From a bacterium (GTDB lineage Archaea > Nanobdellota > Nanobdellia > SCGC-AAA011-G17 > GW2011-AR17), in contig JAUYPF010000009.1 of assembly GCA_030697685.1 (NCBI GenBank), positions 1-35,910 on the forward strand: a DNA stretch of 35,910 nt, given 5' to 3'. A model generated the notes under the pieces. The model was not told the DNA's origin, did not search any database, and saw nothing but the letters and a program-made list of their open reading frames with translations. The position numbers and the translations under genes were made by a program. Shown in pieces: positions 7,401 through 12,638 of the stretch (position 1 is its first letter; each line of letters starts with the position of its first letter).

Positions 7401-9634
7401 ATAAATTTGCCTTGAATCGTTCAGGATCACTTCTTTACCTTAGTATGGACACAAATAGTTCTGTTATCTTGACTTATAATATTACTAATTGGAATGCAAA
7501 TGAATGGCATCATATTGGAATTTCTTGGCAGAGAAATAAAAATCTTAGTTTGTATCTTGATGGAGTGCGTGTCAATAGAACTGTTGGGCCTAATTTAACA
7601 AGTGGGGTTACTGGAGAAATACTATACATTGGAAGTAATGCTAGTTTTAGATCAGGAAATATTATTCTTAATGGAACTCTTGATGAGCTTCGTATTAGTA
7701 ATGTTGCAAGAGAATCAAGTATAGATTTGAATAGCACTAACTTTACACTTACCCTTGGAGACTATGCTGATAATACTTATTATTGGAGAGCTCGTGCTAC
7801 TCAATTGGTTAATGAAAGTCTTGATGGTGAAAGCAGTAATAGCATTTGGAATTCTAGAGCTATACGATTAGATACAAGATTGCCAACTATCATCTCTTTA
7901 GATGACCCTGTTGCTGTGTATTGGGATAATACTACTTCATTGAATGTTACTAGCAGCGAACCTGCTTATTGTGAATATAAAAATCATAGTGGATCTTATG
8001 TCCCTATGGAATTTACTTCAGGGCTTAGTCATGGACAACTTTTAAATTTAAGTAGTGCTGCTGGGAATTATACCTATTTCATCAACTGTAATGATACTGC
8101 AAATCAATTTGTGAATACTACTTTAAGCTTTTATGTCTTTAATAGAAGTGCAAGTGTTTTAGGGATTAATACTACTAATTACTCTTTTGTTGCAAATACT
8201 GCCACTGCTCTTAATTTTACTGACAGTAATGGTATTAATTTTAGCACTGTAAAGATTACTACAAATAATAATATTAGTGCAAAAATTTCTGTAGTCATGC
8301 ATTCTGCTATTCTAAATCCGGAGAATACAAGTACAAATTTAGAATATGAAATTGTTAACTTTTGGACGATTATTCCTGATGATTTCCTCGTTGCAAATCT
8401 GAGTGGGAATGCAACTGTCACACTCTTTTATAGGTCTGCAGCTGTAGAGACTCATCATTCCCCTACTTTCAAGCTCTTTCGCTTTAATTATAAAACTAGT
8501 GAATGGGTTGTACAAACAGAAACAACAGATAAAGATAGACTATCAATTACTTTTAGCACTAAAAATTTTGGGACTTATACTCTTTCGCAAGAACCACCAG
8601 CTCCAGCAAAGAAAAAAATTCTTTCTGATGATGGTGGTAAAGCAAAAGGAGCTGCTTCAGATAAGAAAGAAATAGCTAAAGAGCCATATATTGATTTTCA
8701 TGAAGATGAATATTTGATTTATGAATTTCCTTTTTTATACCTTTATGCTGATGTGGAGGAAAGTATAGAAATGAATGATCCAAATGTTGCTCTTTTTAGT
8801 GGGTACTTTGCTTCTAATAGTGATCTAGAGAACATTATCATTTATGTTCAAGGTGCAGATCCTGAAGAGGCATACAATCGTTTCTCTGTTTTCTCTTCTA
8901 CAATCGATACAAGCCAACTTTCTTATTTGACTCTTGAATATACAGTTGAAAAATTCTGGCTTGAAGAAAATGGGTATACAGTAGATGATCTTGTCTTTGT
9001 TGATGGGGAAGGAACTCTTTATCAAATATATTCTGTTGAGGAAGATGAAGAATATTATTATCTGCAAAGTGATGTGAACCTTTTTGGGACTTTTACTATT
9101 AGCACTCAGACTCTTTATGAAGAAAGTATTACTGCTCTGAGCTCTGAAACTAAAAATGCAGAAGAAGAAAGTGAAATTGAAGAAAATGGAATTCTTGCTC
9201 CTCTAAAAGAAATTCTTTCTTCTCCAATACAAAAATCTTTCTTTTTTATCTTTGTATATGCCATACTCTTTTCCTTGCTCATTTATTATTTTGCAAAAAC
9301 AGGAGCATCATTTTACAATAGAATTAGAAATAAAGAAGTCAGCCCAGAAGAAGTTCCTGAGGATATGAATTTAGGGATTTTGAAACGTTATGTTTATCTC
9401 TATCAGGATAGAGAACATCTTCGAGAAGCTTTAACTCACCAAGGTTGGAAAGAAACTGATATTGAAAAAATGTCTCTTGGAATAAGGAAACTCCCCCAAG
9501 GGCAATTTGAATCTTATATCTATAAGAGACTCTGTTTAGGGAATTCAGAAGAAGATATTTTACAAGATCTTGCTAAAGTTGGTTGGGATACTATGAAGAT
9601 CCAAAAAGAAATTGAGAGATTTAGGAATATTTAA
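4433..9634 (+). CDS. Giant membrane-anchored surface protein with three LamG/concanavalin-like domains and a C-terminal cytosolic tail
   Basis: 1733 aa; N-terminal TM (LILVFLVLFLAVSFATVFFF); three LamG-like cores (VAYWPFDEGSG...NSWKHVAFTYDNTTLSLYIDGV; ...NWTHIVVTRDADNTTRLYVNGS; ...NEWHHIGISWQRNKNLSLYLDGV); very many N-x-S/T sequons; C-terminal TM (SFFFIFVYAILFSLLIYYFA) and a charged tail. Confidence 0.85.
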   Translation: MMIKEKGKDSRFYRDFDERTKTLRTYGVHVLQREEVKKKGRSPLILVFLVLFLAVSFATVFFFPSSFTGFAFLGSENIVSFSLQEGWNLSDGFVRISQNLSVYDIFNLSSYAQDTTLSFDLDNYNLSDGYVYVDLILNETLVDSEYVYYQRQYISLEEEIIKEVFVAENVSITVVEETVLVQEENAGILNTQAGFYVGNSTGTYQVDHVLVENEMPYSSNTFALSCTNGSTSTDVSSLLYLWYVNGSTLRLQNQSSLATGNVSAHDKIECGILPQKGSSLVAYWPFDEGSGTEFHEFVNNFSGSSNKSNWSIGRNYYAIAPNGTNNFTVGNTASLNLTKNFTIEMWISAREAATMEIYHLDVFRIHISGGNLQMDFPLGENGSSQKIISTGSFPLNSWKHVAFTYDNTTLSLYIDGVLDNSTNVSGRLGNYSGVLYFGKNDASSSTHFRGLIDEIAVYNASLNVAEIRDQYKKGIALLSRHNTLEIETTQAQFGNGTCNLVNCSIESGNISLLNVSSIAYYVNGNFTSQLLSLPNGHDDPILRWSNTSPAGTNLSLQVRTGVQGDNETINWGEYSGPDPTHFKATDIIIGVDFSEGKGNTSSTLGALALQANLSNNDFTPFGKHGYGVRMYGENGIAINGVSTALRLSSPKNYSIELWVKPINNNSGIALFSKGQYTMYTNASGTLIFNVSYDDGITRSTEGASSLLLENWTHIVVTRDADNTTRLYVNGSLEKTAITNGSIETGTNSITLGSGAGLDLLNGTLDSFVIYNRTLSAVEIFSHAQDRFTNSTGGEYTGELNRFIQYRAFFESNKSDRTPTLYDVSFRFFNYSAYIYNNNTRNVSLSSQSNNSLQTSNNVTLNWTRAVDFENDTVFYEFLFANDSNFTNVLVSTLAINNMTQVDYSDDNNTIFVEHFELKETLRNHEFIGNWTNTQSYGKWGNGFELKNNGQFLRTLRPVLNGAMGTIEFWVRPNWNGNDGATNYFIEHANDKFALNRSGSLLYLSMDTNSSVILTYNITNWNANEWHHIGISWQRNKNLSLYLDGVRVNRTVGPNLTSGVTGEILYIGSNASFRSGNIILNGTLDELRISNVARESSIDLNSTNFTLTLGDYADNTYYWRARATQLVNESLDGESSNSIWNSRAIRLDTRLPTIISLDDPVAVYWDNTTSLNVTSSEPAYCEYKNHSGSYVPMEFTSGLSHGQLLNLSSAAGNYTYFINCNDTANQFVNTTLSFYVFNRSASVLGINTTNYSFVANTATALNFTDSNGINFSTVKITTNNNISAKISVVMHSAILNPENTSTNLEYEIVNFWTIIPDDFLVANLSGNATVTLFYRSAAVETHHSPTFKLFRFNYKTSEWVVQTETTDKDRLSITFSTKNFGTYTLSQEPPAPAKKKILSDDGGKAKGAASDKKEIAKEPYIDFHEDEYLIYEFPFLYLYADVEESIEMNDPNVALFSGYFASNSDLENIIIYVQGADPEEAYNRFSVFSSTIDTSQLSYLTLEYTVEKFWLEENGYTVDDLVFVDGEGTLYQIYSVEEDEEYYYLQSDVNLFGTFTISTQTLYEESITALSSETKNAEEESEIEENGILAPLKEILSSPIQKSFFFIFVYAILFSLLIYYFAKTGASFYNRIRNKEVSPEEVPEDMNLGILKRYVYLYQDREHLREALTHQGWKETDIEKMSLGIRKLPQGQFESYIYKRLCLGNSEEDILQDLAKVGWDTMKIQKEIERFRNI

Positions 9635-9639
9635 ACACA

Positions 9640-9655
9640 GGCTCTGTCCGGAATC
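9640..9655. repeat. Left terminal inverted repeat
   Basis: GGCTCTGTCCGGAATC, exact reverse complement of 11000-11015. Confidence 0.95.
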
Positions 9656-9657
9656 CT

Positions 9658-10866
9658 TTAATGGGGTTTCGGAACTGAAGTGCTCACTTCCATAATGTAG
9701 TTCATCGCACTCCGATCTAGGCTGAGCCTCAGCCTTTCATTTTCGTATTTTTTAGCTATGTTGAGACATGCATTCAGATGTCTGTTTGCTGTGCTTCCAC
9801 AGGAACATTGAAATGTGTGCCATTCAGCGCTCTTGTTTTTTCCGCCACATATCGGACACATTTGACTGTTGTTCCATGCAGAAACATAGGTGTAGGGGAT
9901 ATTTTCCCATTCTGCTTTGTAATCTAACATCCATTGTACTTTTCTAAAGACTGCTCGATTAAGTCTTCCGAGAATTTTTCTTGGAAGCTTTCTGTGAGGA
10001 AGCATCTGTCCATTATAGATATTTTTCTTGATAACCCTTTTATTAATACTCTCTTTTATATTTTTGAGTTCCTCATGTACAATAATAAGTTCCTTTTCTT
10101 TTGCATAGCTGATAATAGCATTGAGGCTTTCATGTAGGGTTGCTTCAACGCGATGCTTTCTATTTTTATACCAATGAGAAAGCACACGCTTATGTAGGCC
10201 TGTATCACTTGGATAACGCCTCTGCAGATTTCTTGCCATTTCAAAATATTTGCAATTCAAATCATAGACTCTTTCTAAAGACCAAGCCATAATTTCCACG
10301 CGATCTTCTAAGAGTGCTAAACCAACAATTGATTGTTCATTAATATCTAAAGTAAGAATGCCTTTTGGTGTGTATGGGGTGTATTCCTTCTTTATTGTAA
10401 AAATACAATGTGTAGGTGTGACAAGAATTTCTCCAAGACAAAGTAGACCTTGATTTACAAGAGAAAGAAATTGTTGATGATATTCACTCATCTCTAAAGA
10501 AACATACACATATTTTCGTGGAGAAACAGTAATTCTTAGTCTGTTCTTTTCTAATTTCCCATTGTAACCCAAGGAAACAGACATGCTTAACTGCTTTACA
10601 TCAGGTGCAGAAGTATTCTTCTTCTTCTTTCGATAAGATCGATAGATACCTAAAGCATCTCGAGAACAAAGAACAGAATTTCCTCCTGATAAACCAGTTT
10701 GCTTCCTCACTTCTTGACGAAAACTATTCACACCACTCAAAGAAGTTTTCTTCGAAATAAGAAGCTTTTCTACAAATAAATTTTTACCTTTTCGATAAGA
10801 ACGAAGCAAAGTATCTAATTCATTTGAACTCTGAATAGGGATCTTTACTCCTTTGATGGTATGCAT
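9658..10866 (-). CDS. tnpB: TnpB-like RNA-guided nuclease homologue (OrfB/IS1341 type), RuvC-III motif apparently inactivated
   Basis: RuvC-I ILTLDINEQSIVGLAL, RuvC-II IIVHEELKNI, zinc finger CPICGG...FQCSCGS, RuvC-III position ANRHLNACLNIAKK. Confidence 0.85.
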   Translation of the reverse strand: MHTIKGVKIPIQSSNELDTLLRSYRKGKNLFVEKLLISKKTSLSGVNSFRQEVRKQTGLSGGNSVLCSRDALGIYRSYRKKKKNTSAPDVKQLSMSVSLGYNGKLEKNRLRITVSPRKYVYVSLEMSEYHQQFLSLVNQGLLCLGEILVTPTHCIFTIKKEYTPYTPKGILTLDINEQSIVGLALLEDRVEIMAWSLERVYDLNCKYFEMARNLQRRYPSDTGLHKRVLSHWYKNRKHRVEATLHESLNAIISYAKEKELIIVHEELKNIKESINKRVIKKNIYNGQMLPHRKLPRKILGRLNRAVFRKVQWMLDYKAEWENIPYTYVSAWNNSQMCPICGGKNKSAEWHTFQCSCGSTANRHLNACLNIAKKYENERLRLSLDRSAMNYIMEVSTSVPKPH

Positions 10867-10999
10867 AGACTATTCTAAGCAAAAAGCATTTATAAAGCTG
10901 GCGCGCACCCAGTGCCAACGTGTCCGTCTGTCCAAATGCCTAAATTTAGAGCATATATGGCTTATGGCTTGAAGTGATTTTGTCCAAGCCTTGTCCAGA

Positions 11000-11015
11000 G
11001 ATTCCGGACAGAGCC
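11000..11015. repeat. Right terminal inverted repeat
   Basis: GATTCCGGACAGAGCC, exact reverse complement of 9640-9655. Confidence 0.95.
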
Positions 11016-11060
11016 TAAACACAGAAAACTTCTTAAACAAATTATGTTTTTCAATTAGCT

Positions 11061-12638
11061 ATGACTCAACATTGGGCTGACCAAATTGCAGAGGAACTCA
11101 TTAAACGGAGTCCTCAACAAAAAATATATGTTTTTGCAGCAGGAATTAGTCCATCAGGTACAGTACATATAGGGAATTTTAGAGATTTGATTACTCCAGA
11201 AGTTGTTGCTAGAGCACTACAAAGTAAAGGGAAAAAAGTAAGGCTTCTTTTCTCTTGGGATGATTATGATCGTTTCAGAAAAGTTCCAGTCAATGTCCCT
11301 AAAACTTTTGAGGAATATATAGGACTTCCTCTCTCTCAAGTTCCAGATCCTTTTGGAAAAGAAGAAAGCTACGCAAGACATTTTGAAAAGGAATTTGAGA
11401 CAAGTCTTATAGAACTTGATGTTGATACTGAATTTAGATACCAAACAAAACTGTATCAATCTGGGGTATATAATGATTCTATTGTTGAAGCAATGAGTAA
11501 GCGTAAGGCAATAGCAAAAATTCTTAGTGAGTTTAAAACACAAGAAGTGAAGGAAGAAGATATTGAGAGTTATTATCCTTTAACAGTTTATTGTGAACAG
11601 TGCGGAAAAGATTCAACAAAGATTCTTTCGTATAGTGATACAAGCCATGAATTAGGATATTCTTGTAAATGCGGGCATGAAAATACTGTAGATATTGCTA
11701 AAAAAAATATAGGGAAGCTTCAATGGAAAATAGATTGGCCTATGCGATGGAGATATGAAGAGGTTATTTTCGAGCCTGGTGGAAGAGATCACTCTAGTCC
11801 AGGAGGAAGCTATGAAGTTTCTTCACGCATTGCAAAGGAAATTTTTAATATAGAACCACCTTATTATCAGCCTTACGACTTTATTGGTCTTCGAGGACTT
11901 GCGGCAAAGATGTCTGGATCTTCAGGGATTAATGTAAGTCCACAAGAACTTTTAGAAATTTATGAGCCTGTTCTCTTGCGATGGCTATTTTTACGAGTGC
12001 ATCCGACTAAGGCTTTCAGTCTTTGTTTTGATTCAGAGATTATTCGGCAATATGAAGAATTTGATAAAGAAGTTGAATTATATCTTGATGGAAAACTTCC
12101 TCCAGAACAAGCAAGGGTTATTGAACTTGCTATTACTCCTAAAACAAAACTTAAAAAAAATAATATTCCTTTTAGACAAATTGCAAGCATTGGACAAATT
12201 ATCCAGGGAAATACAAAAGAACTAGAACGTATTCTTACAGAAATGGAAACAAATTATAATTATGAATCTTTAGAAAGAAGGCTAAAACTTTCCCAAAGAT
12301 GGATAGAAAAATATGCCCCAGAAATGCATGTAAGATTAAAGGATAGTCCAGATATTGATTATTATCAACAACTTAGTGATAAAGAACAGAGAGATATTGA
12401 TAGATTCTTTAAAGAAATAGATCAACATTGGACTCAAGAAGATTTAGAACATTTTGTCTATGCTATTCCAAAGGATCCTAATTTAGCCATGGAAGAAAAT
12501 AAAATTAGACAAAGAAATTTCTTTAAAAACATTTACCAGATTATTATTGGCAAGGATACTGGACCAAGATTAGCAACTTTGCTTATAGCTATAGGACAAA
12601 AAAAATTAAAGAGTCTTTCTATTCCTCAGAAACATTAG
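11061..12638 (+). CDS. lysS: Lysyl-tRNA synthetase, class I
   Basis: HIGN motif (SGTVHIGNFRD), KMSGSSG signature, class-I LysRS zinc-binding Cys pattern; 525 aa. Confidence 0.95.
   Translation: MTQHWADQIAEELIKRSPQQKIYVFAAGISPSGTVHIGNFRDLITPEVVARALQSKGKKVRLLFSWDDYDRFRKVPVNVPKTFEEYIGLPLSQVPDPFGKEESYARHFEKEFETSLIELDVDTEFRYQTKLYQSGVYNDSIVEAMSKRKAIAKILSEFKTQEVKEEDIESYYPLTVYCEQCGKDSTKILSYSDTSHELGYSCKCGHENTVDIAKKNIGKLQWKIDWPMRWRYEEVIFEPGGRDHSSPGGSYEVSSRIAKEIFNIEPPYYQPYDFIGLRGLAAKMSGSSGINVSPQELLEIYEPVLLRWLFLRVHPTKAFSLCFDSEIIRQYEEFDKEVELYLDGKLPPEQARVIELAITPKTKLKKNNIPFRQIASIGQIIQGNTKELERILTEMETNYNYESLERRLKLSQRWIEKYAPEMHVRLKDSPDIDYYQQLSDKEQRDIDRFFKEIDQHWTQEDLEHFVYAIPKDPNLAMEENKIRQRNFFKNIYQIIIGKDTGPRLATLLIAIGQKKLKSLSIPQKH

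What the first reader, a model, noticed from the sequence alone, without database searches (positions are those of the whole stretch)
9760..9800. RuvC-III catalytic motif of the TnpB homologue replaced (ANRHLNA instead of ADRDxNA)
The translated C-terminus reads CSCGSTANRHLNACLNI. In active TnpB/Cas12 the equivalent is CG-x-x-ADRDxNAAxNI, the Asp before x-N being catalytic (as in Cas12a DADANGA). Both acidic positions are changed (D->N, D->H), while RuvC-I (LDINE), RuvC-II (HEELKNI) and the zinc finger look intact in a full-length ORF. Inference: a nuclease-dead RNA-guided DNA binder, comparable in principle to TnpB-derived TldR repressors.
Basis: partly seen in the sequence, partly recalled or inferred. 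Interest (0 to 1): 0.8.

Follow-up and report, generated by a model that had tools for sequence, protein, structure and literature searches.

The report
TnpB relative with altered RuvC triad
An archaeal gene for a small CRISPR-like, RNA-guided protein of the TnpB family has a histidine where one of its three DNA-cutting acids should be; selection kept it that way, so it probably still binds DNA, but whether it cuts is undecided.

Summary
The ORF at 9658-10866(-) encodes a full-length 402-aa TnpB-like protein. H363 occupies the catalytic RuvC-III Asp position (D361 of ISDra2 TnpB; Asp in 41 of 42 aligned TnpBs). The second change, N361, is ordinary: 20 of 109 Asp-type viral TnpBs carry Asn there.

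A decayed copy in a congeneric Woesearchaeota genome shares the His. Over 46 codons around it dN/dS is 0.08 (p about 1e-6), so the His-bearing protein was under selection and is not a fresh defect. "Nuclease-dead" is plausible but unproven: His at the corresponding position is found in active Argonautes (DEDH), whereas a His in the RuvC site of Cas12m2 goes with binding without cutting. Nothing specific links it to TldR.

The gene is the sole ORF of a 1,376-bp element with a perfect 16-bp terminal inverted repeat and an 8-bp target duplication. Its ends match IS5-type elements of the same order, not IS200/IS605. Its promoter belongs to a roughly 120-bp promoter family that also precedes radA, LAGLIDADG genes, Bro-N genes and a second, canonical TnpB. 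That shared promoter is the most interesting by-product.

The parts
9658..10866 (-). TnpB-like protein P0001, 402 aa
   Evidence: Pfam PF07282 Cas12f1-like_TNB E=1.1e-15; NCBIfam guided_TnpB 62 bits, below its cut-off of 100
9778..9780 (-). codon CAT, H363, at the RuvC-III catalytic Asp position (D361 of ISDra2 TnpB)
9784..9786 (-). codon AAC, N361; a common residue here, not a catalytic change
   Evidence: 20 of 109 Asp-type viral TnpBs have N at this position
10345..10347 (-). D174, RuvC-I catalytic Asp, present; flanking near-invariant glycines replaced (T172, N176)
10072..10074 (-). E265, RuvC-II catalytic Glu, present
9799..9858 (-). CCCC zinc finger (C337, C340, C354, C356), intact
9640..9655 (+). 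terminal inverted repeat GGCTCTGTCCGGAATC, end next to the tnpB stop codon
   Evidence: same end retained beside the tnpB remnant in L004; same motif at IS5-type ends in the order
11000..11015 (-). terminal inverted repeat, end next to the promoter
9632..9639 (+). target site duplication TAAACACA (contains the TAA stop of the upstream gene)
11016..11023 (+). target site duplication TAAACACA, second copy
10877..10997 (-). promoter module R1, shared with radA, LAGLIDADG, Bro-N and a second TnpB gene; TATA box at 10889-10896
   Evidence: 13 copies in the genome (model R1, E down to 7e-32), 9 in G002; placement before ORFs
9640..9760 (-). candidate guide-RNA scaffold at the 3' end: two hairpins kept between the window and the L004 remnant
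   Evidence: two sequences only, no double compensatory change; fold z-score -1.37; weak
9620..9639 (-). candidate guide TGTGTTTAAATATTCCTAAA if the element works like other TnpB elements
   Evidence: Inference from the element boundary; no other genomic site with fewer than 2 mismatches to its first 16 nt

Best explanation
This is the only gene of a small non-autonomous element with IS5-type ends. It encodes a TnpB-family protein whose RuvC triad is Asp-Glu-His. Shown: the substitution, the predicted fold, the intact zinc finger, selection on the His-bearing C-terminus, the inverted repeats with target duplication, and the shared promoter sequence. Inferred: the protein still loads an RNA made from the 3' end of its transcript and binds matching DNA, while double-strand cleavage is lost or strongly weakened, because the metal-binding site has lost one carboxylate and the two glycines around D174. 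In the cell it would act as a guided DNA-binding protein or weak nicking nuclease serving its own element, expressed together with RadA and homing-type nucleases.
For: H363 in place of the catalytic Asp. T172 and N176 replace glycines present in 40 of 42 TnpBs. No alternative Glu at the place where the relatives P0004 and P0005 carry one (P0001 has A there; E265 retained). TnpB/Cas12f fold over the whole length. Shared His and dN 0.066, dS 0.779, ratio 0.084, Fisher p=1.2e-6 over 46 codons against the decayed copy in G003. Precedent: Cas12m2 with a His in its triad binds one Mg and DNA without cutting (PMC10442227). TnpB RuvC mutants at D187, E271 or D335 of SisTnpB1 are strongly compromised (PMC10640517).
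Against: His can be a metal ligand at the corresponding position in active Argonautes (PMC6299218). The gene shares a promoter with likely active nucleases and radA, which fits a cutter at least as well. TnpB needs RuvC to process its own RNA (PMC10278001), so a dead enzyme would need host RNases. The selection test rests on two sequences and 46 codons, and one of the two copies later decayed.
Confidence: 0.48

Rival explanations
1. Active nuclease with a DEH triad: H363 coordinates the metal much as the His of DEDH Argonautes does, and the protein cuts the empty site so that the element is copied back by recombination, in step with RadA.
For: DEDX with X = D, H or K is catalytic in Argonautes. 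One TnpB with a rearranged RuvC site is active. Purifying selection with the His in place. Shared promoter with radA and LAGLIDADG genes. Canonical E265 and D174 retained.
Against: Argonautes have a fourth acidic residue that TnpB lacks. Loss of both RuvC-I glycines. A His in Cas12m2 goes with loss of cutting. His is very rare at this site, and two of the three viral His loci are broken or deleted.
Confidence: 0.25
2. Relic on its way out: the protein no longer does anything and the open frame is residual.
For: Single intact copy. The only close relative is a frameshifted fragment. Several near-invariant residues lost. NCBIfam score below cut-off.
Against: 402 codons open, zinc finger intact, dN/dS 0.084 around the His with the His shared by two genomes, complete promoter and ends.
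Confidence: 0.15
3. TldR-like repressor that uses a fixed guide against a host promoter.
For: Catalytic substitution in a full-length TnpB.
Against: No conserved partner gene; two different insertion sites (window, L004); the candidate guide has no other match with fewer than 2 mismatches in a 92% complete genome, though TldR seeds can be too short for this test.
Confidence: 0.1

Closest known systems
TnpB (IS200/IS605, IS607), e.g. ISDra2 TnpB and SisTnpB1
   Same: Domain order, RuvC fold, CCCC zinc finger, D174 and E265, element end directly after the gene.
   Different: RuvC-III Asp is His, RuvC-I glycines lost, ends are inverted repeats with an 8-bp target duplication instead of Y1 or serine-recombinase ends; about 20% identity to the viral TnpBs aligned.
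TnpB clades with rearranged catalytic sites (RII-r3, RII-r5, RIII-r4; PMC10278001)
   Same: A TnpB whose catalytic triad departs from DED; RIII-r4 concerns RuvC-III.
   Different: Reference sequences of RIII-r4 were not at hand, so whether this protein belongs there was not tested. The relatives P0004 and P0005 look like a RuvC-II rearrangement; this protein does not.
Cas12m2 (type V-M, HDD triad)
   Same: His in the RuvC triad of a Cas12/TnpB-fold protein; model for binding without cutting.
   Different: The His replaces the RuvC-I Asp there, not RuvC-III; Cas12m is a CRISPR effector.
TldR (TnpB-like nuclease-dead repressors)
   Same: TnpB derivative with catalytic substitutions.
   Different: No conserved partner gene and no recognisable promoter target here.
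IS5-type insertion sequences of the same archaeal order
   Same: GGCTCTGTCCNNAATC ends.
   Different: No transposase gene inside; the cargo is tnpB and its promoter.

Membership tests
TnpB family | RuvC-type fold with TNB zinc finger | tested here: met
TnpB family | Asp-Glu-Asp RuvC triad | tested here: not met
   D174, E265, H363
TnpB family | Score above the NCBIfam guided_TnpB cut-off | tested here: not met
   62.2 against 100 bits
TnpB family | Guide-RNA scaffold at the 3' end of the gene | tested here: inconclusive
   Two conserved hairpins in two sequences; no Rfam match there
IS200/IS605 or IS607 element | Y1 or serine transposase, no terminal inverted repeats, no target duplication | tested here: not met
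   16-bp perfect inverted repeats and 8-bp duplication, no transposase inside
IS5-type element (non-autonomous) | Ends shared with IS5-type transposons | tested here: met
   the transposase match is partial (64 bits, cut-off 140)
TldR | RuvC catalytically inactive | not testable with these tools
   Needs a cleavage assay; the sequence suggests impairment
TldR | Conserved association with a non-transposon partner gene | tested here: not met
   Window copy lies between a LamG-type gene and lysS; remnant L004 lies beside a different aminoacyl-tRNA synthetase
TldR | Guide matching a host promoter | tested here: inconclusive
   Only two 2-mismatch sites besides its own flank
Cas12 (CRISPR effector) | CRISPR array next to the gene | tested here: not met
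   No repeat array in 9500-11200
TnpB clade RIII-r4 | Placement with RIII-r4 sequences in a tree | not tested
   The reference paper is not held

The most novel reading that the evidence does not exclude
A lineage of TnpB with a stable Asp-Glu-His RuvC site, moved by IS5-type ends and driven by a promoter family that couples RadA with RNA-guided and homing nucleases in Woesearchaeota, so that guided DNA binding or cutting is switched on together with homologous recombination.
Probability: 0.3. Interest if true: 0.75.

Novelty: new variant of a known kind. Interest (0 to 1): 0.5.

Why it matters
It is a natural test of whether a RuvC site with His at the third position can cut, in a family where known substitutions yield both cutters and pure binders. 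The shared promoter also offers a way to find what switches on radA and mobile nucleases together in DPANN archaea; my limited search of the held papers found no report of it.

Tried and rejected
Both acids lost: rejected, N361 is ordinary. Recent inactivating mutation: rejected by the shared His and dN/dS. Rearranged catalytic Glu: not seen, P0001 has Ala where P0004 and P0005 carry Glu. IS200/IS605 element: rejected, ends are inverted repeats with a target duplication. IS6 family: my first guess from the 8-bp duplication, dropped when the order-mate transposase matched IS5. His as the preferred substitute at this site: not supported; in IMG/VR Glu (4 true cases), His (3), Gly, Tyr and Asn (1 each) all occur, and the Asn/Tyr/Ala/Gly/Val scans demanded NA, so they are not strictly comparable. 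Close relatives in viral contigs, plasmids and phages: none, only about 25% identity. An orthologous empty site next to lysS in the genus: not found, because no congener matched this lysS at E<=1e-50. A guide target elsewhere in the genome: none. Atomic distances in the predicted active site could not be measured, since coordinates are not released by the tool.

Full report
Observation. The gene at 9658-10866 on the minus strand is an uninterrupted 402-codon ORF, single copy in a 1.07-Mb, 92% complete genome. Pfam finds the TNB zinc-finger domain (E 1.1e-15). An AlphaFold2 model built on 43 sequences (pLDDT 78.5, pTM 0.73) matches Cas12f and TnpB structures over the whole length (best E 6e-14; ISDra2 TnpB 8h1j 2.5e-12). 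The RuvC-III motif is STANRHLNACLNI. The alignment to ISDra2 TnpB puts H363 at the second Asp of DRDENAA, D361 by my count, a member of the D191/E278/D361 centre (PMC10097598). Asp is found there in 41 of 42 aligned TnpBs.

Two corrections. The first 'acidic' change, N361, is common: 20 of 109 viral TnpBs with the catalytic Asp carry Asn there, and NADxN defines the 'Derived' TnpBs (PMC10278001). D174 and E265 are present.

How rare is it? An exact DNA pattern for CG-x3-[ND]-x-His-x-N-[AG]-x2-N-I matched only the window among 342 genomes of the phylum; the Asp version matched 14 times in 190 relatives. L026 has lost RuvC-I and RuvC-II, L029 is frameshifted, and L028 is open but cut by the contig end. 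Other substitutions also occur (Glu 4, Gly 1, Tyr 1, Asn 1). His is therefore rare and recurrent, not a preferred replacement.

Is it maintained? It carries ASRHLNTCLNIAKKYEDERLRLSLNRSAMN and is frameshifted upstream. Over the 46 alignable codons dN is 0.066 and dS 0.779 (ratio 0.084, Fisher p=1.2e-6). The His thus most simply predates the split, and the region was under purifying selection with it. For comparison, the canonical TnpB of the same genome (P0002) against its G002 ortholog gives 0.148 over 333 codons.

The element. A perfect 16-bp inverted repeat, GGCTCTGTCCGGAATC, bounds 9640-11015, flanked by TAAACACA on both sides; about 0.04 matches were expected per shuffled window. The L004 fragment keeps the same end next to the tnpB stop, at a different genomic site. 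GGCTCTGTCCNNAATC recurs in order-mates, often at contig ends as expected of repeats, and in G034 it lies beside a transposase fragment that best matches NCBIfam transpos_IS5_2. So tnpB is cargo of a non-autonomous IS5-type element, not of IS200/IS605. TnpBs with other transposase associations are mentioned in PMC10278001, so this is unusual rather than unheard of.

The promoter. Upstream of the start codon, inside the element, lies a roughly 120-bp module (10877-10997) found 13 times in this genome and 9 times in G002 (model R1). In each copy where an ORF could be assigned, it points into the gene, with a TATA box shortly before the start. Downstream genes include a small protein followed by RadA in four genomes (G000, G002, G005, G006; RadA by my reading of the sequence), LAGLIDADG proteins, Bro-N and KilA-N proteins, HNH-like proteins (my reading, no Pfam match), and a second TnpB with an intact DED triad (P0002 and its G002 ortholog). 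This looks like a shared regulatory input for recombination and mobile nucleases. Regulation itself is inferred, not shown.

Mechanism. Shown by sequence: Asp-Glu-His triad, loss of RuvC-I glycines, intact zinc finger and predicted fold, selection, ends, promoter. Inferred: RNA from the 3' end of the transcript guides the protein; two hairpins are kept there between the two copies, with one-sided changes that keep pairing and a loop deletion, but with two sequences this is weak (single-sequence z-score -1.37). Cutting is probably lost or weakened. Precedents point both ways: Cas12m2 with a His in the triad binds one Mg and does not cut, and restoring DED did not bring cutting back (PMC10442227); Argonautes cut with His as the fourth residue (PMC6299218), and one TnpB with a rearranged RuvC-II cuts (PMC10278001). 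TnpB also needs RuvC to process its RNA (same paper), so a dead enzyme would rely on host RNases. I put binding with impaired cutting at 0.48, an active DEH enzyme at 0.25, a relic at 0.15 and a TldR-like repressor at 0.10.

TldR. There is no conserved partner gene, the two known copies sit at different loci, and the flank that would serve as guide matches nothing else in the genome with fewer than two mismatches. The comparison is therefore only one of principle.

Verdict. New variant of a known kind.

Noticed in passing
window 10877-10997; L006-L014, L176-L204: A roughly 120-bp promoter module shared by radA operons, LAGLIDADG, HNH-like, Bro-N/KilA-N and two TnpB genes in this genus (13 copies in G000, 9 in G002, weaker ones in G005, G006 and G018): a candidate recombination-linked regulon.
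   Followed up: partly
L003 1435-2460(-), L002 1318-1959(+): Order-mate TnpBs with Gly or no acid at the RuvC-II Glu and a Glu in the V-x-E-x2-TS-x2-C position instead, like the published RuvC-II rearrangements.
   Followed up: no
L017 1408-2978(-): Canonical IS200/IS605 pair (TnpA_Y1 and TnpB, LDRDVNSAKNI) elsewhere in the same genome.
   Followed up: no
L158 complement of 470-514; L149, L151, L152, L153: Viral TnpBs with Gly or Glu at the RuvC-III Asp; L149 also has Lys at the RuvC-I Asp position. Candidates for inactive TnpBs.
   Followed up: no
window 11061-12638: A lysyl-tRNA synthetase (class I by its sequence, my reading) next to the element has no match at E<=1e-50 in six congeneric genomes; possible gene replacement.
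   Followed up: no
L161, L162, L164, L167-L174: GGCTCTGTCCTGAATC repeats at contig ends of order-mate genomes: multi-copy IS5-type or MITE-like elements.
   Followed up: no
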